Positions 1 through 56,329 of a DNA stretch of 64,000 nucleotides are shown here, one piece after another. The position numbers were made by a program, and so were the translations under genes. Each line of letters starts with the position of its first letter. Position 1 is the stretch's first letter. The notes under the pieces are model-generated. The model was not told the DNA's origin and did no database searches. It worked only from the letters and a program-made list of their open reading frames with translations. Source of the DNA: Chrysemys picta bellii (taxonomy: Eukaryota > Chordata > Testudines > Emydidae); the NCBI RefSeq assembly GCF_011386835.1, contig NC_088791.1, positions 8,866,998 through 8,930,997 of the forward strand, given 5' to 3'.

Positions 1-1782
1 ACCTGCATGAATGACAACAAAATTTCATTTCCATTCTAATGGCTTGAGCCAAATCCCCTTAAGTAATAACGTCCTTGTCCTGCATTAGTGGAGCAGTGGA
101 ATGTGACTGGAAGTGATTTGTGGAACTAGACAGTTCTTAATGTTATGTAAGACTCCATGACAGGTAACACATACTCTGAGAAAGAATGAGGCTGGGAGGA
201 GCAGTGTGGTGCGGTGTGATGTTCCTAAATACTACTAGGAAATAATATCCCTCTCTGCCTGCCATGGAGTATATTCAAAACAGCCTGAAATGTCAAGCAC
301 ATAGAGAAAAGTGAGTTAAAAGGGGCCCACTTGCTGGCATGCAGGGAAAGGCTATATTAATTGCCAAATTAACACTTCATATATTCATAGTTAATTTTGG
401 CAACTGATTTCAGTTGGGGGAGGAGGAGGGAAATTCTCCTGTCCTTCAAGTTACTAGACATGTATTAGGAATGACAGCCTATGATTGCTGCAGACAGCAT
501 CTAATTAACTGTCATTATAAAACACATGTCAAAGCCTGGGGCCTATGCTGGATCTGCTGCCTAATTTAGCTCCAGAATATTAAAGTCCCCTTTCAAACAA
601 GCTGGTGAATGAATTTTGTTGTCTTATGGAACAACCTGGTTCCCCCACAAGCCCCCTCTCCCTTTTGGTGTTCACATTTAAAACAAGTGATGGATTTAAA
701 ACCACTTCCTTGCTGGCTTCTTACTAGTCAGCCTTAGAGAAGGACTGGAACACAAGTATGACATGAAAGTGGAAGCTGTCTGTAAAACTATTAGCTGTCT
801 AATGAAACAATTATATCTCAACAACAATGACCCTTACAGGGCTTATTTTCTTAGTACTACATCACACAGATCTTAGCTCTCTTTTTTATTAATTAGAGCA
901 AGGCATAATTTTAACCGAGACACAGAGAGATTAATTTGTGGGGAAGAAGCAATATAAGCTTTGGACAGGAACTGATCAGCATTCAATGATAGGTACCTTG
1001 TACCTCTTCAATCTGTGAAGTCTCCAAACATGTGACTGCTGGGGTCAGAATTCTGGGGAAGGGGAGATGAAAGGTTTCGATAGAGCCCACTGCCACTATG
1101 ACTTACTCAATCATATCGGATTACCCTTTGCAGATAATCCCAAGGATGCAAAACATAAAAGCCTACAGCCATATCACCTTGGGCCACACGCCTAGTCAGA
1201 TCTTATGCTAGCACAGTCAGATTTAGCCAGAACTTGGATGGGAAGCCTACAAGGAAAGCCCAGGTACTGCAATTGGCCGTGGTGGTTGATTCCGTTGGTA
1301 GCATTCTTTCCTTGGGAGTCTGTTTTGAACCCACGGGTCATCATAGTGCTAGAGATTACTGTATTCTAGAGGTGCAATATTTTTGATAAGACATGGATGT
1401 TTTGTAAGAGTAAGGGATGTTTCCCTCAGGATCCCAGTCAAATTCTAATTTCTGGAATTGCATTCTGCTTACCTAAACTCCCCTGAAGATATTCTTCACT
1501 TTCCTTCCTAAAAGCTGTGTAGTGTAACTGATGTGGAATGATTCTTCCATTCAACCTTTGCCTCCCTTTCCAAGCCACAGGATCCTATTCTATAAGAGGA
1601 AATGGAAGTAACAAGTATTTTAGTGTGATGGTGGTAAAGGACAAACATTAGTAAAAGGACTAGAAAAGAATCTTCATTCAAGAGGAGGGTTGAGGATGTC
1701 CACATTTGGGATGGGAAACTGGGATTCTTTCAATATGAATATAATCTGACTATGGATTTCTCTTAATTGCTCCCTCCTCAGT
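1..1782. other. Unique AT-rich DNA, no gene recognised
   Basis: No reading frame here has the length or composition of a gene, and I recognise no repeat. The stretch around 340-560 is rich in TAATTA-type homeodomain-like words, which is compatible with a conserved noncoding element but not diagnostic. Confidence 0.5.
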
Positions 1783-7847: not shown

Positions 7848-8281
7848 ATTTATAGTAGGGCTGTCGATTAATCGAAGTTAACTCACGCAATTAACTCATG
7901 CAATTAACTCCGATTAAAAACATTAATTGGGATTAATCGCACTGTTAAACAATAGAATATCAATTGAAATTTATTAAATATTTTTGGATGTTTTTCTACA
8001 TTTTCAAATATATTGATTTTTATTACAAGACAGAATACAAAGTGTACAGTGCTTACTTCATATTATTTTTTATTACAAATATTTGCCCTCTAAAAGTGAT
8101 AAACAAAAGAAATATTTTCCAGTTCACCTCTTACAAGTACTATAGTGCAATCTCTTTATCATGAAAATGTAACTTACAAATATAAGGGTTCTTTTGTTAC
8201 ATAACTGCACTCAAAAAGAAAACAATACAAAACTTTAGAGCCTACAAGTCCATTCAGTCCTACTTCTTGTTCAGCCAATTG

Positions 8282-8491
8282 CTAAGACAAACAAGGTTGT
8301 TTACATTTACGGGAGACTGCTGACTGTTTCTTATTTACAGTGTCACCTGAAAGTGAGAACAGGCGTTCGCATGGCACTTTTGTAGCCAGCATTGTGAGGT
8401 ATTTACATGCCAGATATGCTAAATATTCATATGTCCCTTCATGCTTTGGCCACCATTCCAGAGGACATGCTTCCATGCTGATGATGCTCAT
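8282..8491 (-). pseudogene. Inverted copy of the hAT transposase dimerisation (hATC) segment
   Basis: On the reverse strand the left arm encodes a 69-residue open stretch. In order it shows PLEWWPKHEGTYEYLA, then KYL, VPCERLFSLSGD and VNKKQ, the conserved core of the hAT C-terminal dimerisation domain (the W-x(n)-P...CER-FS-G pattern). It is in better condition than its partner in the right arm (about 8930-9120), which has stop codons. It has no start of its own and no catalytic residues, so it is a fragment carried by the inverted repeat and not a gene. Confidence 0.75.
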
Positions 8492-8923: not shown

Positions 8924-9526
8924 GCAGAACCCATCATCAGCACGGACGCACATCCTCTGGAATGGTGGCTGAAGCATGAAGGGACATATGAATATGCATC
9001 TGGCACATAAATATCTTGCGACTCCGGCTACAACAATGCCATGTGAATGCCTGTTCTCACTTCCAGGTAACTTTGTCAACAAGACACGTGCAGCATTATC
9101 TCCTGCAAATTGTAACCAAACTTGTTTGTCTGAGTGACTGGCTGAAGTAGGACGGCTGAAGTAGGATTGAATGGACTTGCAGGTTCTAAAGTTTTACATT
9201 GTTTTATTTTTGAATGCAGTTATTTTTTGTACATAATTCTACTTTTATAAGTTTAACTTTCATGATAAAGAGATTGCACTACAGTATTTATATCAGGCGA
9301 ATTGAAATATACTATTTCTTTTGTTTTTTACAGTGCAAATATTTGTAATAAAAAATAAATATAAAGTGAGCACTGCACACTTTGTCTTCTGTGTTGTAAT
9401 TGAAATCAATATATTTGAAAATGTAGAAAACATCCAATATATTCAAATAAATGTTATTCTATTATTGTTAACAGTGCGATTAATTGCAATTACTTTTTTT
9501 AATCGCTTGACAGCCCTAATTTATAG

Positions 9527-23918: not shown

Positions 23919-25287
23919 TCATAGAATCTTAGAAGATTAGGGCTGGAAGAGACCTCAGGAGGTCATCTAGTCCAACCCCAACTAAATCATCCCAGCCAGG
24001 GCTTTTTCAAACCAGGCCTTAAAAACCTCTAAGGATGGAGATTCCACCACCTCCCTAAGTAACCCATTCCAGTGCTTCAACACCCTCCTAGTGAAATAGT
24101 TTTTCCTAATATGCAACCTAGACCGCCCCCACTGCAACTTGAGACCATTGCTTCTCGTTCTGTCATCTGCCACCACTGAGAACAGCCATGCTCAATCCTC
24201 TTTGGAACCCCCCTTTAGGTAGTTGAAGGCTGCTATCAAATCCCCCCCTCATTCTTCTCTTCTGCAGACTGAATACGCCCAGTTCCCTCAGCCTCTCCTC
24301 ATAAGTCATGTGCCCCAGCCCCCTAATCATTTGCGTTGCCCTCTGCTGGACTCTCTCCAATTTGGCCACATCCTTTCTATAGCGGGGGCCCCAAAACTGG
24401 ATGCAATACTCCAGATGTGGCCTCACCAGTGCCAAATGGAGGGGAATAATCACTTCCTTCAATCTTCTGGCAATGTTCCTACTAATGCAGCCCATTAGCC
24501 TTCTTGACAACAAGGGCACACTGTTGACTCATATCCACTTCTCGTCCACTGTAATCCCCAGGTCCTTTTCTGCAGAATTGCCGCTTAGCCAGTCAGTCTC
24601 CAGCCTATAGCAGTGCATGGGATTCTTCCGTCCTAAGTGCAGGACTCTGTACTTGTCCTTGTTGAACCTTATCAGATTTCTTTTGGACCAATCCTCCAAT
24701 TTGTCTAGCTCACTCTGGACCCTATCCCTACCTTCCAGCATATCTACCTCTCCCCGCAGCTTCATGTCACCCGTGAACTTGCTGAGCATGCAATCCATCC
24801 CATCATCCAGATCATTAACGAAGATGTTGAACAAAACTGGCCCCAGGACCAGCCCCTGGGGCACTCCGCTTGATACCGGCTGCCAACTAGACATGGAGCC
24901 ATTGATCACTACCCGTTGAGCCCGACAATCTAGCCAGCTTTCTATCCACCTTACAGTCCATTCATCCAATTCATACCACTTTAACTTGCTGGCAAGAATA
25001 CTCCGGGAGACCATATGAAAAGCTTTGCTAAAGTCAAGGTATATCACGTCTACTGCTTTCCCCATATCCACAGAGCCGGTTATGTCATCATAGAAGGCAA
25101 TCGGGTTGGTCAGGCATGACTTGCCCTTGGTGAATCCTTGTTGACTGTTCCTGATCACCTTCCTCTCCTCCAAGTCCTTCAAAAATGGATTCCTTGAGGA
25201 CCTGCTCCATGATGTTTCCAGGGACTGAGATAAGACTGACTGGTCTGTAGTTCCCCAGATTCTCCTTCTTCCCTTTTTTAAAGAACT
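23919..25287 (-). mobile_element. CR1 LINE, reverse, 5'-truncated
   Basis: About 1.37 kb of a CR1 element on the reverse strand. The + strand begins at the CR1 tail (TCATAGAATCTTAGAAGATT) and passes through GGAGATTCCACCACCTCCCT (3' coding end). Reverse transcriptase coding sequence follows up to the truncation near 25287 (CCTTCTTCCCTTTTTTAAAG). The coding frame is broken into at least three segments: 24529-25320, 24163-24519 and 23982-24176. CR1 copies are usually 5'-truncated on insertion, as here. It is inactive. Confidence 0.92.
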
Positions 25288-37639: not shown

Positions 37640-38495
37640 CCTGGCCTCACAGGAGAAGAGTGAAAAGCTGTCGTGCAGTGTCTCAAGAGCATGAGTACCA
37701 ACCTCAGGGCAGACTGTTAAAAGACTGGGCACAAACTCCAAACTGCCTGTGAGTTCAATACTTAGATTCACCCACCAAGTATCAAGTGCAAACCGTTCAG
37801 GCACTGTAACAGCCTTAACATGGAGTCGCCTTGGGTATCTGTCTTGCCACCCAGATAACAGACGGTCCCTTAGACCAAGAGTCACAGCAATATTTAGGTT
37901 ACTCCCTGTCCCAAAGGACCAGTCACCTACCCCAGGTCAATTACACCTTAGATCTCACACCAGAGACAATGCTTGTAGCCAGTCCTACAATAAACTATCT
38001 AAAGATGTATTACTAGGAAAAAGAAATGAGTTCTTTACGAGGTTAAAGCAGGTAAATATATATACACTAGTTCTATGATAAGCAAGCTCTGTGTGTCCTT
38101 TAGGGCTAACCCAGGCTAAGAAGCTGGGGATCTCTTGCTTGTGTTAAGGAAACCTTGTCCCGCAGAATCCAAGCAGTATAGAGATCCAGTTCCTTCATCA
38201 GGGATTTTTATTCCCTTCCTCCCAACCCCCATGTGCTCTGAGCTGCAAACTCAGCCGACGGGAGGAATTCACTTGCATGACTCCTCTTCATCAGGGGTAG
38301 GGTGGGAGAGCAGAACAAGTCTTTTGTTCTCGTTAATGTTCCACAATAGTACATCTGGTGTCCACCAGGATGTAACACCATCTGCTGGAGATCAACACTT
38401 TATGCTATTTAATCTCTCTCTCCTGTCTGGTGAGTCTCACAGTCACAGATGCATACAATACAAATGCTTAAATATTACCTTACCACATGTGATAT
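37640..38495. repeat. Probable solo LTR, ends not resolved
   Basis: The block contains CCACCCAGATAACAGACGGT, CCCAAAGGACCAGTCACCTA, CCCCAGGTCAATTACACCTT and ATTACTAGGAAAAAGAAATG. I associate this set with a recurrent LTR-type repeat of turtles. No coding capacity was seen (open frames up to 122 codons on both strands, without domains). I could not find terminal TG/CA with a target duplication, so both ends and class are uncertain. Confidence 0.4.
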
Positions 38496-41029: not shown

Positions 41030-41623
41030 GTGTAGTAGGAGCATTGCCAGCAGACCGAGGAAAGTGATTATTCCCCTCTATTCGGCACAGGTGAGGCCAC
41101 ACCTGAAGTACTGTGTCCAGTTTTGGGCCCCCCACTACAGAAGGGATGTGGACAAATTGGAGAGAGTCCAGCGAAGGGCAACAAAAATGATTAGGGGGCT
41201 GGAGCACATGACTTATGAGGAGAGGCTGAGGGAACTGGGCTTATTTAGTCTGCAGAAGAGAAGAGTGAAGGGGGATTTGATAGCAGCCTTCAACTACCTG
41301 AAGGAGGATTCCAAAGAGGATGGAGCTTGCCTGTTCTCAGTGGTACCAGATGACAGAACAAGGAGCAATGGTCTCAAGTTGCAGTGGGGGAGGTCTAGGT
41401 TGGATATTAGGAAACACTATTTCACTAGGAGGATGGTGAAGCACTGGAATGGGTTACCTAGGGAGGTGGTGGAATCTCCATCCTTAGAGGTTTTTCAGGC
41501 CCGGCTTGACAAAGCCTTGGCTGGGATGATTTAGTTGGGGACTGGTCCTACTTTGAGCAGAGGATTGGACTAGATGATCTCCTGAGGTCTCTTCCAACCC
41601 TAATATTCTACGATTCTATGAAA
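41030..41623 (+). mobile_element. CR1 LINE 3' end, 5'-truncated
   Basis: About 590 bp of CR1 in forward orientation, ending with the typical CCTAATATTCTACGATTCTA TGAAA tail. The frame 41028-41534 (168 codons) is open and encodes the C-terminal part of ORF2. It reads [20 protein letters not shown], then [20 protein letters not shown] and finally [20 protein letters not shown]. Downstream TTAGTTGGGGACTGGTCCTA is the CR1 3' UTR. Compared with the two reverse copies this one is the least decayed, but it lacks all catalytic motifs. Confidence 0.92.
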
Positions 41624-45242: not shown

Positions 45243-46079
45243 TAGGGCCCTGCCAAATTCATGGGCCATTTTGGTCAATTTCATGGTCATAAGATTTGTA
45301 AAATTGTCAATTTCACAATTTCATGGTGTTGTAATCATGGGGGTCCCGACCCAAAGGAGGACGTGGGGGGAAGGGGCCGCAAGGTTACTGTACGGGGCTC
45401 GTGGTATTGCCACCCTTACTTCTGCGCTGCTGCTGGCAGGGGCACTGCCTTCAGAGCTGGGCAGTAGGACAGCAGTGGTTGCTGGCTGGGCACCAAGCTT
45501 AAAGCCAGCACCAGCAGCAGCGCAGAAGTGAGGGTTACTTGGTATAGTGAGGAGAGTTACCATACGTCTGCGTTTACGTCGGGGGCTGACAGCTGGGGCC
45601 GCAGCCTCCTGCCCAGGTCGGGGGCTGACAGCTGGGATCACAGCCTCCCGCCCACGTCGGAGGTTGACAGCAGGGGCCGCCGCCTCCCGCCCGGGTCGGG
45701 GGCTGACAGCAGGGGCCGCCGCCTCCCGCCCGGGTCAGGGGCTGACAGCAGGGGTCGCTGCCTCCCGCCCGGGTCGGGGGCTGACAGCCACCTTCACTTC
45801 TGGGCTGCCTTTAAAGCTGGGCTCCCAGCCAGCAGCCGCAGAACTTCCTGCAGTGGAAGGAGGTTGCCAGAGGTGGGTCTGACCCTGCTCTGGGAGTGGC
45901 CTCTGGAGGGGAAGAGGAAGTCTTTGTCCCTCCCCAGCTGGGCCAGGACTAACAGTTGGAGCCCAATGCACAATAGGAGCCCCCGGGTGGGGCACCACCA
46001 GCCCTGCCCCTCCCTTACAATAGCCAGATTTCACGGTCTGTGACACATTTTTCACAACTGTAAATTTGGAAGGGCCCTA
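45243..46079. mobile_element. hAT-like element (TAGGGCCCTGCCAAATT family) with minisatellite
   Basis: An 837-bp element with inverted ends TAGGGCCCTGCCAAATTCATG and TGTAAATTTGGAAGGGCCCTA. The flanks CCCATGAG and CCCATGCAG are probably the 8-bp duplication with a small indel. TTTCATGGT-type words occur near the left end and TTTCACGGTCTGTGACAC near the right end. The middle contains a 39-bp minisatellite (45578-45789). Frames of 171 and 111 codons run through the repeat because 39 is divisible by 3; they have no start context or domain. Confidence 0.85.
45578..45789 (+). repeat. 39-bp minisatellite, about 5.4 copies
   Basis: Units of GTCGGGGGCTGACAGC(A/T)GGG followed by a CCGC-CCTCCCGCCC block start at 45578, 45617, 45656, 45695 and 45734, with a partial copy from 45773. 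Units 3 and 4 are nearly identical, implying recent expansion. It is very GC-rich, inside the hAT-like element. Confidence 0.93.
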
Positions 46080-48255: not shown

Positions 48256-49847
48256 TGGAGGTCAGCGCCGCTCTGCTCCCAGACCAGCTCCACCCCACAA
48301 CCCCATTCAGCCTCCAGTCCTGCTGTGCCTACAGGCAGAGCGCCGCCAGGGCCGGCTTTAGGCCGATTCCACTGAATTGGGCCCCGCACCTAAGAGGGCC
48401 CCGCGCAGATCGGGCAGCGTCCCTGCCTGAAGCAAAGCTCTGAGGCTCTCCCGGAAGCAGCAGCTATTGCTGCTAGGCAACCAGAGACGCTGGCCCGCAG
48501 AGGTCTAGGGCTGAGGCAGAGGCAGCGGGGGCTGTTGCAGGTCAGGAGGGGGGAGGGAGGGAGAAGGCACACCTGCTTTGCAGCCTTCCCATCCCCTCCC
48601 CCTGGCACTCACCTGGAGGAGATGCCGAGGGGGCTTCCGGTCTGGTGGGAGACAGGAATCTCTGCAGTGGACCTCACTCACCTGAGCAGCTGCTGGGGCT
48701 TCGGTCAGTGAGTGTTTGACTTTGTGATTCCCCCTAGGTGTGTAATATTGGGTTGGTTTTGTGGTTTTCGGTGGTGTTGCTGTTTGAGGGTGAGTTTGTG
48801 CCTGCCTGGGTCTGTTTCAAAACTAAACTCGGGATCATGTAACCCAGGAAGAAAGCCCCGAGCCGGTGCTTAGTGCTGTGAATTCCAGGTGAGAGAGGAG
48901 GGTGGGGGTTTGGACGAGGAAATCAAATACATCAAGAGGGGAGAATGCGAAAGGTCTGCAACACGGCAGGCTGAGACTTTTATCTCTCCCCTCCCCGAGA
49001 GAGGGAAAACTGAGGCACGGAGTGATCTGAATCCCCTCCCCAAATTATTTTGCAAAGGAGAGGGACGGGGGCTCCTATCCAAACCAGTTTCCTTCCCATC
49101 AATTCTGCTTCCCCTGCTGCAAGACCGCTGTAGGGGCTGAATATTTCCATTAAACTCTGGCTCCTTCGTTTGCCCTGCAACAATAAAATAGACCGGCTTT
49201 CGGGGGGGGGGGGGGAATAGCCCCTCCCCCAAGCTGTGTGGACATTAAGGTTTTTTTTTTTGGAGGGGGGGCACAATAATATTCCGGATCAATCAAACGC
49301 CCAGCTCAGCTTTCTAGCCATCCAGCAGCTCTAGGACAGGGAAGGAAGGTGCTCTTGGTGCAGAGCGGTCACAAAACAGGGGTGAATTTAGCGGGGGGGG
49401 GGGGGGGTGTGTGACGTTATTGACATAAACTGGGACCGTATAGATCATTGTTGCAACCAAGGTCCTGTAGTGGCACCCAAATCTTGTATAAAGGGGGTCA
49501 AATGGGGTGTCTAGGACAAGGTTATGGTTTACTGGTTATGATTATGCTGTCTAGATGTGTGTATCAGTTTTGTAGTTGAAGTTATGAATATTGGCTCTAT
49601 ACTGTCTGTATGGCAAACTTATGCTATGCTTCTGGGTGACATCCCAGACAAGCTGAGATTAGCTCTGCCTAGCCTGCTTGATGGCCCATTAAGGACCATC
49701 AGCTATACAATGGACCCATTGAGAGAAGGCAGATACGCCTTGTACCTCAGCAAAGTATGCAGGGACTGGCCCATGTGACTCCAGACTCCATGTTGCTGTA
49801 ATCTTCCACAGTAAGAACAAAGAGGTGATCTTACACCTGGAAAAGAC

Positions 49848-49854
49848 TATATAA
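49848..49854 (+). promoter_or_regulatory. TATA box of the 5' LTR
   Basis: TATATAA in the context AAGACTATATAAGGCTGATG is the likely core promoter for the element's genomic RNA. The same sequence occurs at 55246-55252 in the 3' LTR, where it could drive flanking DNA. Confidence 0.7.
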
Positions 49855-50104
49855 GGCTGATGCCTGATCTCCATCTGGTCTTCAATCCTGCTTCTTACCT
49901 CTGGAGGAACTTTGCTACAAGCTGAAGCTTTGAACAAAGGACTGAGGACCCATCCCAGCGGGGGATGTATTCCAGAGACTTGATTTGAACCTGCAGTTTA
50001 TTCCATCGCTGCTGCAAGCCTGAACCAAGAACTTTGCCATTACTGTATGTAATTGATTCCATTTAACCAATTCTAACTCTCATCTCTATCTTTTTCCTTT
50101 TATG

Positions 50105-50110
50105 AATAAA
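50105..50110 (+). terminator. AATAAA signal in the 5' LTR
   Basis: AATAAA followed by a T-rich/GT-containing stretch. The corresponding signal at 55503-55508 in the 3' LTR would end the RNA. Confidence 0.65.
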
Positions 50111-50490
50111 CCTTTAGATTTTAGATTCTAAAGGATTGGCAACAGCGTGATTTGTGGGTAAGATCTGATTTGTATATTGACCTGGGTCTGGGGCTTGGTC
50201 CTTTGGGATCAGGAGAACCTTTTTCTTTTACTGGGGTATTGGTTTTCATAACCATTTGTCCCCATAACGAGTGGTACTGGTGGTAATACTGGGAAACTGG
50301 AGTATCTAAGGAGATTGCTTGTGAGACTTGCAGTTAGCCAGTGGGGTGAGACTGGAGTCCTCTTAGTCTGGCTGGTGGTTTGCCTTAGAGGTGGAAAAAA
50401 CCCCAGCCTTGGGCTGTAACTGCCCTATTTGAGCAATTTGTCCTGAGTTGGCACTCTCAGTTGGGTTCCGCCAGAACCGCATTGTCACAG

Positions 50491-50501
50491 TGGCGTAGTC
50501 G
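50491..50501 (+). other. Primer-binding site, tRNA-Ser type
   Basis: TGGCGTAGTCG starts one base after the LTR. It is the reverse complement of the CGACTACGCCA 3' end (with CCA) of a vertebrate serine tRNA. It would prime minus-strand synthesis by a reverse transcriptase supplied in trans. Confidence 0.75.
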
Positions 50502-50607
50502 TGCTTGGATCCACAGAACCAGGTCAATTAAGCTTTGGGTCAGAACCCCACGCTATCCAAATTTGAATTTTGGGATTGAGAGTTTTGTTGGTTAAAGAGC
50601 TGCTGCA

Positions 50608-53600
50608 ATGGCTGAGCAAAGAGCATATGAGGGACTTGGGAAAAAAGCCCTGGAAAATTTGTGTTCAGAAAAGAGGATAAGCTTTAGAAAGAAAGCTACA
50701 AAGGAAGAATTGAGAAATCTGCTAATAGCCAGTGATCAGGGGGCAAGAGCACAGCCCTTACCTGAGGCTGCAGAAGATGCAGAAAAAATTAGGATGCAAA
50801 GGGTGACAAGTCAACTGCAATTTGAGCATGAACAGAAGCTGGCAGATCTTCGATTGCTGGAGAAGCACAAAATAGCAGAGTTAGAAAGAGAGAGAGAGAA
50901 AGAGGCTGCTGAGAGAGAGAAAGAGGCTGCTGAGAGAGAGAAAGAGGCTGATCAAAGAAAGAAGGAGGCTGAAGAGAGAGCCCGTAAGGGGCGTCTAGAG
51001 CTGCTCGCTGCTGAGCAGGAGACTCACAGGATGGAACAGGAGACTCACAAGATGGAACAGGAGACGGCCAGACTTCAGCTCCAAGTAATGGAAGAGCGGA
51101 GAAAGTCATCCCCACCTGGTACTCCACTTCCCCCCCGCCATGAGAAAAACTGGGAAAGGATGTGTCCCATTTACAATGATACTGAGGATATAGAGGAGTT
51201 TTTGTCTACCTTTGAACGCCTCTGCAATCTGTACCAGATCCCTGAGGGTCAGCGAATGCCTGTCCTGCTAACCAGACTGACTGGAAAAGCCAGGGAGGTG
51301 TTTAATGACTTGGGGGAACAAGAAGCGTTAAATTATGAGCGGTTTAAGGATTCTGTGTTAAGGCGATTCAAGGTTACTCCTGAATCTTACAGAGTTAAGT
51401 TTAGAGAGTTTAAAATGCCTAAGGATTGTACTTTTGTAGAATGTGCTCATAAGCTGATGGGTTTTGTTAAAAAGTGGGTTATGGGAGCCAAGGTTCATGG
51501 GAGTTTTGAAAAACTGCTGGATTTAATAACTTTGGAACAGTTCTTAGACATTGTGCCTGACAATGTGAGAGCAGCTGTGTGTGACAGGGACCCTGAGTCA
51601 GTCCTACGGGCAGCAGAGATTGCCGATGCCCATACCCAAAACAGGGCTCGAGAAGGGTGTAAAACCCCGGGGAAAACTGATCACCAGTCTCCCCAGTTCA
51701 AGAGGAGGGAAGGATTTAAAAATAAACCTGACTCTTCTAAAGGAGTTCAAGGGGGCCCGGAGGGTAGGAACTCGCATCCCCAGCAGGTTACATGCTATCG
51801 TTGTGGTATGCTGGGCCACATGAGACCAGACTGCCCGACACTGAAGGGCAGCCCAAAACCAGCAACCCCAAATGCCACGGCCAATGCTAACCCTGTTGTT
51901 GTAAACTCACAGGCAAGCCACACAGAGCCCAGCATTGGTGCCCTGTGTGCAAATGCTGTTTCTGTTGTCTCTGAAGGATTTGACCTTAAAACTCACATTA
52001 AAGCTAAATATGGGGGAAATAATGCAGAGTTTATTAGCAGTGCAGAAGTGAATGGAGTGAGGTGTATGGCATGGAGGGACACCGCAGCAGATATTACTCT
52101 GGTTAAAGCAAGTCTTGTCAGGAAGGAAGATTATTTGCCAGGCGAAGATATAACTGTTGTAGCCTTATCTAAGTATTTTGTCAGGGTGCCTTTGGCTAAA
52201 ATCCACCTGAAATGGAAGGGATTGGAGGGCACCATGGTTGTGGGAGTAAAAGACATAATCCCTAAGGATATTATGATTGGAAATGATATTAAAGCTATGG
52301 TCAGTCAAGTTAATACAAACCAGGCACAAGAGAGGATTGATCCTAAGGTTGTGCCTATGGAGGGTTTCTCCAAAAGTTTGTCTTTGGAAAGTAGCTGTTT
52401 GGCTGTGAATGAAGTTTCTGAATGTCTATCTAATGTCTCAGAAGTAAATCTGGAATTAGATCAAGCGAAGGGAGAGGAGAACAAGGAGATTTTGGATGAG
52501 CCTAGGCAGTCTTGTGAGCTGATGGCTTTATCTAGTCAGCAGTTTGGGAAGGCAAGGAGAGTGGAAGATGAGTGCCCCTATACCTTATCTGTTTCCTGTG
52601 CGAAGAACAGTGACAGTGAAGGAAATGTGCCTGTGTCTGTCAGGGGTGTTGACTTGCCTATGGAGGAAGCTACCCCAGTCTCCAAGCAGTTGTCTGTGAA
52701 CAGCCCGGTGTGCTGGGACAAGGGAAATGAAATCCCAAACAGTATGTCTAGTAAAGGAAAATGCGTCTCCAACTCTTTTTTGTCTGTGGAGCAGACAGAA
52801 GGTGCCTTTCGGCCTGTGATGGTTGAGAGTAATTTAGTTGTCTCAGAGTTGGTTCTGGATTCAACCAAAGCCCAGGAAGGGAATGGTCCTAAGTTTGCAT
52901 CTGCTGGGGAGAATGGCCCCGTAACTAGGTTGCATCCAGTTAGTGGCTTAGCAAAATCCCAGAGACCAAACAGTTCTGGTGCTTGTATTTTGCCTGTTGC
53001 TCATGTGTGGTTGGAGAAGGGTGTAACAACTCTGTCTGATCAGGGTGATACCCTAGCCAGGGCACAAGGAGAGCAGAAAGGTAATTTGGTTGTGTTACCT
53101 ACGGACAGTTTAACAACTTGTAGCAAAAAGGAAAAAATTCCTAAGCTTGTGTGTGGCAAAGAGAAGGGAAGTATTTCTAACCTTTTATCTAGGAAGTCTA
53201 TGGGTTCGCCTGAAAGGGGATTGTGTAGAGATCTGCCTGATGGGCCAAAGGTGATCCTGAATGTAAGTAAGACCCAGACAGAGTCTGTTGTTGCTCAGGA
53301 AAGTGTGCCTTTAGAGCAAGCCCTAGGTGAAGAGGGTAAGGGCAGAATTTCTGTGAGGGGTGAATTGCTGCTTAGAAAAGCTCCTGGAGAAAGGAATCCT
53401 CATGGTACTCGGTGCAAGCAGTTCCCTGCAATTGAAGGGTGTGAGAGTGATTTAATCAAGGAAGTTTCAGTTCCTAGCAGCCAAAAATTGTCTGTTGTGA
53501 AGGGATCCACTAACTTTCCTTGTAAAAGATCCAGTGTGGGTAGCTTTGAGAAGGTCTCAGAGGAAGTAAAAGTTGTTAAGGGATTGAGGCATCCCTATAA

Positions 53601-54912
53601 CCAAGTGGCTGTGTGGGGCCAACTTGTTGGGGAGACAATGGTGTTGGAACAGGAATGTCTCCTTTCTGATTCTTTAAATGAGCAGTTTGTGCTTCAGGGT
53701 TTGAGGACAGATTTGGTTACTGATGTGTCAGAGCAGAGCAGTTTTATGGCTAAATGCTTGAGGATGCGGGGGAGAGGAAGCAAACTCTCACCCGCAGACT
53801 TTTTGGATTTGTGTGGTATCTCTTTAAGACAGAGTCCAGCCTTGGAGATGATAGCAGTTACGAATATGAAAACTGGTGGACTGGCTCTGGTCTGGGGTAG
53901 TGCAAATTACTTGCCTGGCTGGGAAAGGAAGGACTTGCTAATAGCTGTTAGCACAGAGGGCCCACCCCATCAGCCAGTGAATTCTGTTAAGCAAGAGAAA
54001 TCAGGGTTTGATCCTGCAGGACAAGGAGGAAAGAGAAAACTGAATTTTGCAAAGGGAAGCCACAGGTTAACCCTAAAATGCCCAAACTCCAATGGTATTG
54101 AGCCAAAGGGGTGGCATGACAAACATGACTGTAGATGGACACTTGCAATGAACTTGTTGTTATTGCTAAATTTTGTAATTAATGTGTTGCTATTGCCACA
54201 AACGGTAAAAATATACAATGTGCCTAATCTTTTGGAGAATTCATTGAACATGTTAAAAGGAATACATGAAAACACACGTTATGTTAAAAGGCCTTGTTAC
54301 ACTGGGGTTTCACAGGCAATGCATATAAACAATATGGGAACTTTTCACAGGGGAGAGGACATTCCAGACCTAATGTGCTGTATGAAAAGGAAGACTGAGG
54401 CACACTACCATATTGCTTTCATGGCTAAATGCCAAGATTCCTGGACTATGAAGAACATTAATATCTGCATTTATTCGATGTTAATTGGGTTCCAAACATT
54501 GGCCCGAGCTTGTATGGATAAAGTAGCAGTTTTCTTTAGCTCTTGGCAAGATCACATGGCACATACAGGAACCATGCTGCCAGAGCAGATCCAATCCACT
54601 ATTGTTCTAACTAAGTGTTACCTTGAGTTTGTAAAGAGGTTCAATCATGTTATTGAACATGACTTTGATGAACCATTTCTGTTATACACTGGTATGGCTT
54701 CTAACCCAATACTAGCTGTAGTGAGACAGAACCCAGGATGGGGAGCTCTTGGGATGCAGTCAGTGATGTTTGTGTCATCCCTTCCTGCATCAATTTTGCG
54801 TTGGGGGTGTGACGTTATTGACATAAACTGGGACCGTATAGATCATTGTTGCAACCAAGGTCCTGTAGTGGCACCCAAATCTTGTATAAAGGGGGTCAAA
54901 TGGGGTGTCTAG
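50608..54912 (+). CDS. Gag-protease polyprotein of a pol-less LTR retrotransposon
   Basis: A 1434-codon frame without a stop, starting at the first ATG after the primer site (context GCTGCAATGG). Residues about 8-42 resemble a SAP-like helical module. Residues 58-166 are a long charged coiled coil with three 7-residue repeats (EREKEAA). Residues 182-350 form a capsid whose C-terminal half (258-341, PESYRVKFREF to LITLEQFLDIVPDNV) is SCAN-like. C396, C399, H404 and C409 make a CCHC zinc knuckle. Residues 470-565 are an aspartyl protease with active site D491-T492-A493-A494 (the family normally has DTGA or DSGA) and the flap-partner block IMIGNDI (555-561). Residues about 570-1170 are a long Ser/Glu/Val-rich region I do not recognise. 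1179-1196 is a hydrophobic, membrane-like stretch. About 200 further residues include several cysteines. The last 34 codons lie in the 3' LTR. No YxDD, RNase H or integrase motif is present. The particle proteins could act in cis or trans with pol from a relative. Confidence 0.88.
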   Translation: MAEQRAYEGLGKKALENLCSEKRISFRKKATKEELRNLLIASDQGARAQPLPEAAEDAEKIRMQRVTSQLQFEHEQKLADLRLLEKHKIAELEREREKEAAEREKEAAEREKEADQRKKEAEERARKGRLELLAAEQETHRMEQETHKMEQETARLQLQVMEERRKSSPPGTPLPPRHEKNWERMCPIYNDTEDIEEFLSTFERLCNLYQIPEGQRMPVLLTRLTGKAREVFNDLGEQEALNYERFKDSVLRRFKVTPESYRVKFREFKMPKDCTFVECAHKLMGFVKKWVMGAKVHGSFEKLLDLITLEQFLDIVPDNVRAAVCDRDPESVLRAAEIADAHTQNRAREGCKTPGKTDHQSPQFKRREGFKNKPDSSKGVQGGPEGRNSHPQQVTCYRCGMLGHMRPDCPTLKGSPKPATPNATANANPVVVNSQASHTEPSIGALCANAVSVVSEGFDLKTHIKAKYGGNNAEFISSAEVNGVRCMAWRDTAADITLVKASLVRKEDYLPGEDITVVALSKYFVRVPLAKIHLKWKGLEGTMVVGVKDIIPKDIMIGNDIKAMVSQVNTNQAQERIDPKVVPMEGFSKSLSLESSCLAVNEVSECLSNVSEVNLELDQAKGEENKEILDEPRQSCELMALSSQQFGKARRVEDECPYTLSVSCAKNSDSEGNVPVSVRGVDLPMEEATPVSKQLSVNSPVCWDKGNEIPNSMSSKGKCVSNSFLSVEQTEGAFRPVMVESNLVVSELVLDSTKAQEGNGPKFASAGENGPVTRLHPVSGLAKSQRPNSSGACILPVAHVWLEKGVTTLSDQGDTLARAQGEQKGNLVVLPTDSLTTCSKKEKIPKLVCGKEKGSISNLLSRKSMGSPERGLCRDLPDGPKVILNVSKTQTESVVAQESVPLEQALGEEGKGRISVRGELLLRKAPGERNPHGTRCKQFPAIEGCESDLIKEVSVPSSQKLSVVKGSTNFPCKRSSVGSFEKVSEEVKVVKGLRHPYNQVAVWGQLVGETMVLEQECLLSDSLNEQFVLQGLRTDLVTDVSEQSSFMAKCLRMRGRGSKLSPADFLDLCGISLRQSPALEMIAVTNMKTGGLALVWGSANYLPGWERKDLLIAVSTEGPPHQPVNSVKQEKSGFDPAGQGGKRKLNFAKGSHRLTLKCPNSNGIEPKGWHDKHDCRWTLAMNLLLLLNFVINVLLLPQTVKIYNVPNLLENSLNMLKGIHENTRYVKRPCYTGVSQAMHINNMGTFHRGEDIPDLMCCMKRKTEAHYHIAFMAKCQDSWTMKNINICIYSMLIGFQTLARACMDKVAVFFSSWQDHMAHTGTMLPEQIQSTIVLTKCYLEFVKRFNHVIEHDFDEPFLLYTGMASNPILAVVRQNPGWGALGMQSVMFVSSLPASILRWGCDVIDINWDRIDHCCNQGPVVAPKSCIKGVKWGV
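50890..50952 (+). repeat. 21-bp in-frame tandem repeat in the coiled coil
   Basis: Three units of GAGAGAGAGAAAGAGGCTGC (21 bp each with the final base) start at 50890, 50911 and 50932. They code for a 7-residue heptad-length repeat, which keeps coiled-coil phase when copy number changes. Confidence 0.9.
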
Positions 54913-55887
54913 GACAAGGTTATGGTTTACTGGTTATGATTATGCTGTCTAGATGTGTGTATCAGTTTTGTAGTTGAAGTTATGAATATTGGCTCTATAC
55001 TGTCTGTATGGCAAACTTATGCTATGCTTCTGGGTGACATCCCAGACAAGCTGAGATTAGCTCTGCCTAGCCTGCTTGATGGCCCATTAAGGACCATCAG
55101 CTATACAATGGACCCATTGAGAGAAGGCAGATACGCCTTGTACCTCAGCAAAGTATGCAGGGACTGGCCCATGTGACTCCAGACTCCATGTTGCTGTAAT
55201 CTTCCACAGTAAGAACAAAGAGGTGATCTTACACCTGGAAAAGACTATATAAGGCTGATGCCTGATCTCCATCTGGTCTTCAATCCTGCTTCTTACCTCT
55301 GGAGGAACTTTGCTACAAGCTGAAGCTTTGAACAAAGGACTGAGGACCCATCCCAGCGGGGGATGTATTCCAGAGACTTGATTTGAACCTGCAGTTTATT
55401 CCATCGCTGCTGCAAGCCTGAACCAAGAACTTTGCCATTACTGTATGTAATTGATTCCATTTAACCAATTCTAACTCTCATCTCTATCTTTTTCCTTTTA
55501 TGAATAAACCTTTAGATTTTAGATTCTAAAGGATTGGCAACAGCGTGATTTGTGGGTAAGATCTGATTTGTATATTGACCTGGGTCTGGGGCTTGGTCCT
55601 TTGGGATCAGGAGAACCTTTTTCTTTTACTGGGGTATTGGTTTTCATAACCATTTGTCCCCATAACGAGTGGTACTGGTGGTAATACTGGGAAACTGGAG
55701 TATCTAAGGAGATTGCTTGTGAGACTTGCAGTTAGCCAGTGGGGTGAGACTGGAGTCCTCTTAGTCTGGCTGGTGGTTTGCCTTAGAGGTGGAAAAAACC
55801 CCAGCCTTGGGCTGTAACTGCCCTATTTGAGCAATTTGTCCTGAGTTGGCACTCTCAGTTGGGTTCCGCCAGAACCGCATTGTCACA
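54808..55887 (+). repeat. 3' LTR (1080 bp)
   Basis: Offset exactly 5398 bp from the 5' LTR and identical to it by eye, including the TATA-like box (55246-55252) and AATAAA (55503-55508). A short G-rich run TTGGGGG (54801-54807) directly upstream is the only polypurine-tract candidate and is weak. Confidence 0.95.
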
Positions 55888-56329
55888 GGGGGGGAGGGGA
55901 GTCCAGTTGAAATCCTGCCCGATGCAGCCACACAGAATCGCTGGCGGCGCTAGGAGAGGCCAGGAGTGGAAGCAGGTGGCCTGGGGGTGGGGGGCCATTT
56001 GCCCTCAGTCCTGCGCTCTGGGATGGACTAGGCTGGGTGGTGGGTTCAGTCTAGTCTTCCAGCCTGTTGCTCTCGCTGGGGTTTGTGGTTTTTATGTGGC
56101 TCTACCAAAAAGATCAAACAAGCCCAGTAGAAAAGGGGGGGTGAGAGAGGCGGGAAGGAGTTTGTAAGGGGTTAAAGTGACCCATCAACGAAAGAGTAAA
56201 ACCAGAGTTTGACTGGGTTTCCCCCCAGCCACCACTCCTGCAAACACCGGGCAAGGGGCAGCCCCATCCCCCACCGAGGCTATGGTGAGGGGCAGCAGGG
56301 GAGGAAGGAAGCCACATGTGATGGCAGTC

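What the first reader, a model, noticed from the sequence alone, without database searches (positions are those of the whole stretch)
49410..55887. Very young LTR retrotransposon with a complete frame but no pol
Seen: two 1080-bp LTRs, identical on line-by-line reading, a tRNA-Ser primer site, and one uninterrupted 1434-codon frame filling the whole interior. No reverse transcriptase, RNase H or integrase is present in any frame. Known: non-autonomous LTR elements usually have decayed or no coding sequence. Inference: this family keeps a full Gag-protease frame under selection or is very recent, and is mobilised by pol made elsewhere. It may be polymorphic in the population.
Basis: partly seen in the sequence, partly recalled or inferred. 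Interest (0 to 1): 0.85.

Follow-up and report, generated by a model that had tools for sequence, protein, structure and literature searches.

The report
Turtle jumping gene borrowing helper's enzymes
In a turtle genome (most likely the painted turtle) a young family of virus-like jumping genes keeps its own shell protein but has hollowed-out enzymes, and it appears to spread by sharing its ends and shell gene with a complete sister element that still encodes the enzymes.

Summary
The element is real, young and one of a family. Its LTRs (49410-50489, 54808-55887) are identical over 1080 bases, and one 1434-codon frame (50608-54912) runs 35 codons into the 3' LTR. It is no one-off or assembly collapse: of 33 further copies fetched from the same genome (most likely Chrysemys picta bellii), 31 keep frames of at least 1390 codons, and 19 of the 20 with both LTRs complete have exact 5-bp target duplications. 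"No pol" needs correcting: in-frame relics of integrase, RT (YIDD to CMDK) and probably RNase H remain, and the protease motif is altered (DTG to DTA). A pol-bearing family with long open frames is present. It shares LTRs (2-4% substitutions), PBS/leader (98-99%), gag (96% nt, dS about 0.12) and the last 75 nt before the 3' LTR. Across the protease dS is saturated, and the core has only short DNA matches. So this is a mosaic: helper-like ends around an old core also seen in other turtles. Gag is under purifying selection in the full set of copies; core codons drift near-neutrally, yet the frame stays open. Plants have analogues (TR-GAG, Quinta, Sabrina).

The parts
49410..50489 (+). 5' LTR, 1080 bp (TG...CA), with TATATAA at 49848 and AATAAA at 50105
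   Evidence: identical to the 3' LTR; motif positions
50491..50501 (+). primer-binding site, fits tRNA-Ser 3' end over 11 nt (tRNA recalled)
   Evidence: leader 98-99% identical in 2 of 2 helper elements seen there
50608..54912 (+). single open frame, 1434 codons, stop inside the 3' LTR
   Evidence: 31 of 33 fetched copies keep at least 1390 codons
50608..51891 (+). Gag (residues 1-428): N-terminal part rich in charged repeats, SCAN-like capsid domain (258-347), CCHC knuckle (395-410); 94-95% identical to helper Gag
   Evidence: Pfam; changepoint; dS 0.11-0.12 against two helper elements
52003..52317 (+). protease relic (residues 466-570), DTGSD of the helper reads DTAAD
   Evidence: WRDTAA in 32 of 32 long frames
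52348..54147 (+). accessory core (residues 581-1180), no Pfam domain above cut-off, shared with turtle proteins that show no pol domain (many are partial gene models)
53188..53595 (+). relic of protease-integrase linker and integrase zinc domain (residues 861-996, helper 582-734)
   Evidence: helper Integrase_H2C2 at 672-729
54139..54195 (+). strongly hydrophobic 19-residue segment (residues 1178-1196), possible membrane anchor
   Evidence: mean hydropathy 2.23, Chelonoidis P0007 2.55, helper maximum 1.67; exact 18-residue string in 26 of 32 frames
54181..54465 (+). relic of the integrase C-terminus (residues 1192-1286, helper 972-1066)
   Evidence: score 77, best of 300 shuffles 44; helper Integrase_p58_C at 991-1024
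54469..54624 (+). relic of the RT palm (residues 1288-1339), YIDD to CMDK
   Evidence: score 105, best of 300 shuffles 47; helper RVT_1 at 1153-1312
54661..54744 (+). weak relic of RNase H (residues 1352-1379, helper 1402-1428)
   Evidence: local: 1 of 300 shuffles as good; global: 1 of 500; helper RT_RNaseH at 1402-1506
54733..54807 (+). helper-like 3' block with the G-run polypurine tract
   Evidence: 92-93% identical over 75 nt in 4 of 4 helper loci that reach there, not further upstream
54808..55887 (+). 3' LTR, 1080 bp; its first 35 codons are the C-terminus of the frame
49405..49409 (+). 5' flank GGGTG, imperfect partner of GGGGG at 55888-55892

Best explanation
This is one copy of a young semi-autonomous LTR retrotransposon family of the Gmr1-like Ty3/Gypsy kind in a turtle genome, most likely Chrysemys picta bellii. 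It encodes its own SCAN-type Gag, but protease, integrase, RT and RNase H survive only as altered or shrunken in-frame relics. Shown: many copies with the same structure, near-identical LTR pairs and target duplications; a pol-bearing family with long open frames in the same genome that shares LTRs, PBS/leader, gag and the polypurine end; a sharp fall in similarity at about residue 428, where synonymous divergence goes from 0.12 to saturation. Inferred: its RNA is packaged with the helper's (shared leader and Gag), is copied and integrated by the helper's enzymes acting on shared PBS, PPT and LTR ends, and the pol-less core has been re-fitted with the helper's ends by template switching during reverse transcription. 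Shown only in part: the core stays open for long times although its amino acids drift near-neutrally. The likeliest reasons are that ribosomes must cross it (shorter 3' UTR) or that it acts as a spacer or accessory protein.
For: 15 LTR pairs spaced 5356-5419 bases among the best 40 LTR matches, the window's own included; 13 of them fetched. 33 copies fetched in all: 31 frames of at least 1390 codons; 19 of 20 copies with both LTRs complete have exact 5-bp duplications; those 20 LTR pairs differ at 12 of 21,590 sites. 75 of 75 scored core matches (of 1569 candidates) carry no stop, 65 of 75 lie in frames of at least 1390 residues. RT search: 31 of 150 scored matches (of 12157 candidates) are 93-100% identical to the P0002 helper over nearly all of the query, 18 of these 31 in frames of at least 1500 residues (counted by eye). 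Helper against window: LTR substitutions 2-4% in six pieces of five elements, leader 98-99% and gag 96% nt in two, last 75 nt 92-93% in four. Protease dS saturated in two of two. Changepoint gain 84.7 log units against at most 10.8 in 300 permutations; P0001 gives 84.4. Gag omega 0.30 (0.18-0.50) in 32 frames. Core in proteins of Chelonia, Caretta, Chelonoidis, Macrochelys and, distantly, Emydura.
Against: No transposition, particle or RNA was observed. In the LTR-chosen set (the window and 12 copies) omega is 0.50 (0.25-1.18) for gag and 0.80 (0.50-1.31) for the whole frame, so purifying selection is not shown there. The other copies were picked by protein score, which favours intact frames, and two short-framed copies were dropped before the counts. 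Five helper elements were compared, in pieces. The autonomous families at about 63% and 57% RT identity were not compared for LTRs and could also serve as helpers. The changepoint control window against Emydura Gag slightly exceeded its own permutations (8.4 against 8.0), so small gains mean little. The species name rests on one equal contig length (209,633,115); P0002's contig length (291,303,948) differs slightly from C2 (291,300,265).
Confidence: 0.88

Rival explanations
1. The interior frame is kept open for the RNA's sake, not for a protein function: ribosomes must run far enough that the 3' UTR does not become very long, otherwise the full-length RNA, which is both gag message and genome, would be destroyed by nonsense-mediated decay.
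For: Core omega 0.89-1.20 between the two pol-less subfamilies (165 and 176 substitutions over residues 581-1180) with no stops, while 150 random changes leave zero stops in only 5, 12 or 26 of 2000 trials, depending on the share of transitions. The frame ends just inside the 3' LTR. Retroviral gag messages have long 3' UTRs, and Rous sarcoma virus has a stability element that acts on such RNAs (PMC5580461, title and start of abstract in the listing).
Against: In two copies of the second subfamily the frame ends about 640 nt before the 3' LTR, so reading into the LTR is not required. The copies compared were picked for good protein matches. The protease relic shows amino-acid constraint (between subfamilies 0.57, 0.36-0.85).
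Confidence: 0.3
2. The core encodes a useful accessory protein, perhaps membrane-anchored through residues 1178-1196, that helps assembly, release or trafficking.
For: The core persists in several turtle families with conserved blocks; the hydrophobic segment recurs in Chelonoidis; the second subfamily lost capsid and nucleocapsid DNA yet kept the core frame. With plain Nei-Gojobori counting residues 581-860 have omega 0.39 (0.20-0.87).
Against: Omega near 1 for the core between subfamilies, and 1.01-1.39 for residues 861-1180 among copies; with kappa 4 residues 581-860 are 0.56 (0.28-1.12); no known domain.
Confidence: 0.25
3. A very recent burst from one or few master copies; the open frame is merely young and is not kept by selection.
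For: LTR pairs nearly identical; omega 0.80 (0.50-1.31) in the LTR-chosen set. Drift to P0001's identity leaves zero stops in 38 of 100 trials, so P0001 alone says nothing.
Against: Related frames are open in other turtles at 65-75% identity, where neutral drift leaves on average 4-9 stops (zero-stop trials 0, 0, 1, 3 and 0 of 300 for the five relatives tried); gag omega 0.30 in 32 frames.
Confidence: 0.15
4. A one-off deletion or assembly collapse of a pol-bearing element.
For: None found.
Against: 33 fetched copies with the same structure at different sites, those with complete LTRs with their own target duplications; P0001 carries the same structure.
Confidence: 0.01

Closest known systems
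RLG_Quinta / RLG_Cereba pair of wheat (PMC11302176, passages read)
   Same: Gag plus a domain of unknown function, no RT or integrase; shares LTR parts, PBS and other diagnostic motifs with an autonomous partner; recombination around gag.
   Different: Plant; no in-frame relics of the enzymes in the passages I read; there gag shows barely any DNA homology to the partner's, here gag is nearly the helper's and the core is the divergent part.
TR-GAG elements of plants (PMC8704663, passages read)
   Same: LTR element with one frame encoding Gag; one such element transposed in Arabidopsis ddm1 and resembles a potentially autonomous element.
   Different: 562-residue Gag frame there against 1434 residues here, with about 600 residues of accessory core and pol relics; vertebrate host.
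RLG_Sabrina_SA 'semi-autonomous' elements of wheat (PMC9744471, passages read)
   Same: Gag-protease frame without RT/integrase in a co-evolving complex of elements.
   Different: Here the protease motif is altered and the host is a turtle.
Gmr1-like Ty3/Gypsy elements with SCAN-type Gag (PMC3424704, passages read; Emerson and Thomas 2011, cited there, is not held)
   Same: SCAN domain in Gag; in helper and relics integrase comes before RT. That this order marks Gmr1 is recalled.
   Different: Pol is not functional in this family.

Membership tests
LTR retrotransposon | paired LTRs, PBS, target-site duplication | tested here: met
   (the window's own duplication is imperfect; 19 of 20 other complete copies exact)
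Semi-autonomous / TR-GAG-like element | intact Gag frame without functional RT/IN, as a repeated family | tested here: met
Semi-autonomous / TR-GAG-like element | autonomous partner sharing LTR ends, PBS and PPT | tested here: met
   (five helper elements, in pieces)
Semi-autonomous / TR-GAG-like element | observed transposition with the partner's enzymes | not testable with these tools
   needs cells or pedigrees
Gmr1-like Ty3/Gypsy | SCAN-type Gag | tested here: met
   PF02023 E 2e-13 in the window's frame, 2.4e-13 in the helper
Gmr1-like Ty3/Gypsy | integrase upstream of RT (criterion recalled) | tested here: met
   helper P0002: integrase zinc domain 672-729, core 751-844, RT 1153-1312, RNase H 1402-1506; the window's relics have the same order
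Gmr1-like Ty3/Gypsy | RT phylogeny | not tested
   no RT tree made
Endogenous retrovirus | env gene | tested here: not met
   no envelope family among the Pfam matches of the frame; one hydrophobic segment only
TRIM / LARD | no coding capacity (criterion recalled) | tested here: not met
   1434-codon frame

The most novel reading that the evidence does not exclude
Long-lived vertebrate pol-less retrotransposons keep a long interior frame open without keeping its amino-acid sequence: selection acts on being translatable (escape from RNA surveillance, or length), while Gag, leader and LTRs are repeatedly re-copied from the current helper by template switching. The hollowed-out enzymes would be a decoy coding sequence carried through turtle evolution.
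Probability: 0.25. Interest if true: 0.82.

Novelty: new variant of a known kind. Interest (0 to 1): 0.62.

Why it matters
It gives a vertebrate case, in one genome, of a helper and two pol-less subfamilies sharing LTRs and PBS/leader, around a divergent core that is also found in other turtles. Models of parasitic or mutualistic element pairs that have been worked out in wheat could be tested in animals. The contrast of an open frame with near-neutral codons makes the question of why the interior of a pol-less element stays open directly testable.

Tried and rejected
Relic of the integrase core: not supported; window 936-1150 against helper integrase scored no better than many shuffles (75 of 500 local; 70 of 500 global for 951-1191). 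Structure prediction of the protease relic: mean pLDDT 39, not used. Profile comparison of the core with the helper found only the linker stretch. Viral contigs held no match to P0001. tRNA and Rfam (gathering) scans of the window were empty. A tree of residues 637-800 of the core had 9 of 12 inner branches open and was used only for distances. In one search L050 was read on the wrong strand; its frame and omega there are void and were redone. Dating is loose: no substitution in 1080 bases bounds divergence near 0.003, which at a recalled turtle rate of about 1e-9 per site and year means under about 1.4 million years.

Literature: no title on a turtle or other reptile semi-autonomous Gag element appeared in the listings (20 of 31 papers listed; 9 of 9; 10 of 2316; none found; 12 of 233); this covers open-licence PubMed Central papers only. 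In PMC11011659 I read passages on turtle capsid genes and SCAN. Repbase and Dfam could not be searched.
Full report
What is there. The LTRs at 49410-50489 and 54808-55887 are identical over 1080 bases. A PBS-like TGGCGTAGTCG lies one base inside (50491), TATATAA at 49848 and AATAAA at 50105. One frame of 1434 codons runs from 50608 to a stop at 54910-54912, 35 codons into the 3' LTR. Pfam finds a SCAN domain (residues 258-347, E 2e-13) and a CCHC knuckle (395-410), nothing else above its cut-off.

Relatives. A protein search gave five matches among the 7989 candidates scored. P0001 (Chrysemys picta bellii) matches end to end with 18 substitutions and two in-frame length differences, including the tail that lies in the LTR. 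P0002 (same species) is a 1530-residue polyprotein with SCAN, integrase, RT and RNase H domains in that order; it matches well over Gag and more weakly over the protease. Two capped searches with the core (3 proteins: 14 proteins) found it in Chelonia, Caretta, Chelonoidis, Macrochelys and Chrysemys; P0004 of the side-necked turtle Emydura, found, is a distant relative (32%). None of these core matches carries a precomputed pol domain, but many are partial models, and some are fused to other genes (an olfactory receptor, zinc fingers, a DDE transposase domain), so their borders are not trusted. P0002 itself matches a linker stretch of the core.

Hollowed-out pol. Against P0002, residues 861-996 match the linker and integrase zinc domain (score 116, best of 300 shuffles 59), 1192-1286 the integrase C-terminus (77 against 44) and 1288-1339 the RT palm (105 against 47), where YIDD reads CMDK (helper domain borders). 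The RNase H piece is weaker (1 of 300 shuffles as good locally, 1 of 500 globally). The integrase core itself is not recognisable. The protease keeps its Asp but DTG reads DTA. Of 32 long frames (31 copies and the window) all 32 share WRDTAA, and the RT motif is CMDK in 31 and CMDR in 1; my CCHC pattern failed in 2 and the exact hydrophobic string in 6.

The family. The genome search worked from then on. The genome has 2.37 Gb; contig C3 has 209,633,115 bases, exactly the length of the contig behind P0001, so it is most likely Chrysemys picta bellii, although P0002's contig length differs slightly from C2's. The best 40 LTR matches (of 2022 candidates) include 15 pairs spaced 5356-5419 bases, the window's among them. 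I fetched 13 of these pairs as copies and 20 more by core match. All 33 show two LTR matches (several 3' LTRs were cut by my fetch borders), and 31 have frames of at least 1390 codons; the other two have 1242 and 1350. Of the 20 with both LTRs complete in view, 19 have exact 5-bp target duplications and the exception differs in one base; their LTR pairs differ at 12 of 21,590 sites. The 75 best core matches, of 1569 candidates, have no stops inside, and 65 lie in frames of at least 1390 residues. These are the best-scoring copies and so biased towards young and intact ones.

The helper. An RT search gave 150 scored matches of 12157 candidates: 31 at 93-100% identity to P0002 over nearly all of the query, 18 of these in frames of at least 1500 residues (by eye), then families at about 63% and 57%. 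I compared pieces of five P0002-family elements (L042-L047; L043 and L046 are one element). The LTRs have 2-4% substitutions plus 4 to 72 gapped positions; in the two 5' pieces the leader with PBS is 98-99% identical and gag is alignable; in the four 3' pieces the last 75 nt before the 3' LTR are 92-93% identical. Between, only matches of 88 nt (protease, 70-74%) and, in two loci, 60 nt (73%) appear; the pieces together leave a few dozen codons of the helper unseen (positions reckoned). Gag dS is 0.11-0.12 and omega 0.17-0.18; across 92 protease codons dS is saturated. Along the protein the identity falls from 94.5% (381 of 403) to 42% (60 of 143) at residue 428, with a likelihood gain of 84.7 against at most 10.8 in 300 permutations; controls within Gag against Emydura gained 8.4 and 9.0 against permutation maxima of 8.0 and 10.1. 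Constraint on gag alone cannot explain the fall, because synonymous sites behave the same way. Recombination, most simply template switching between co-packaged RNAs, is the natural reading.

A second pol-less subfamily. Searching with P0018 found a related group (88 of 3621 candidates scored, 91 rows); 31 rows list a 976-residue frame, 4 of these with a stop inside (by eye). In the three loci returned, gag DNA matches only in its first 254 nt, so capsid and nucleocapsid are missing. L048 and L050 have LTRs 97-98% identical to this element and a core 90-92% identical; L049 shows only the last 38 bases of the LTR and a broken frame; L048 stays open to the end of the piece held. In two others (the L050 element and C5:143267280) the frame ends at codon 973 and 972, about 640 nt before the 3' LTR.

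Selection. Among 32 frames (kappa 4) omega is 0.30 (0.18-0.50) for gag, 0.16 (0.05-0.57) for the protease relic, 0.56 (0.28-1.12) for 581-860, 1.39 (0.67-3.23) for 861-1180, 0.67 (0.36-1.44) for 1181-1399 and 0.49 (0.36-0.67) overall; in the LTR-chosen set (the window and 12 copies) it is 0.50 (0.25-1.18) for gag, 0.18 (0.00-0.93) for the protease relic and 0.80 (0.50-1.31) overall. Plain Nei-Gojobori counting gives lower values, 0.35 (0.27-0.47) overall. Between the two subfamilies the core gives 0.89-1.20 depending on kappa, with intervals spanning 1, yet no stops; 150 random changes leave none in 5, 12 or 26 of 2000 trials. Between turtles, neutral drift to the observed identities would leave on average 4-9 stops in the five relatives tried. 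So openness is better kept than sequence. The caveats are that open copies were preferentially found and that gene models in other turtles may skip stops.

How it most likely works. Gag and the leader let its RNA enter particles together with helper RNA; helper RT primes at the shared PBS and PPT, and helper integrase recognises the shared LTR ends. The steps after sequence sharing are inferred. In kind this is what has been described in wheat for Quinta/Cereba and Sabrina and in plants as TR-GAG (passages of PMC11302176, PMC9744471, PMC8704663). I found no report of the like in reptiles in the listings named under Tried and rejected.

Noticed in passing
window 37650-38470, minus strand: Old solo-LTR-like relic, 72% over 135 bp to this element's LTR; probably an old related family.
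   Followed up: partly
L037 and L039: LTRs match this family only from position 433 on, as if the U3 part had been replaced: possible LTR exchange between subfamilies.
   Followed up: no
G000:C1:345775910 and 345781308: Two core matches spaced exactly 5398 bases apart, probably a tandem LTR-interior-LTR-interior-LTR array.
   Followed up: no
window 23976-24484 and 41033-41540: Inverted pair 90% identical over 509 bp, beside LINE-like frames (LINE label by eye).
   Followed up: no
window 7911-8486 and 8932-9505: Inverted pair, 79% over 592 aligned positions, perhaps a large palindromic repeat.
   Followed up: no
window 45576-45788: Tandem repeat with a 39-bp step and an open frame of repeated GADSRGRRLPPGS-like units.
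   Followed up: no
P0003, P0005, P0011: Public turtle gene models in which the retrotransposon core is fused to an olfactory receptor, zinc fingers or a DDE transposase domain; likely annotation chimeras.
   Followed up: partly
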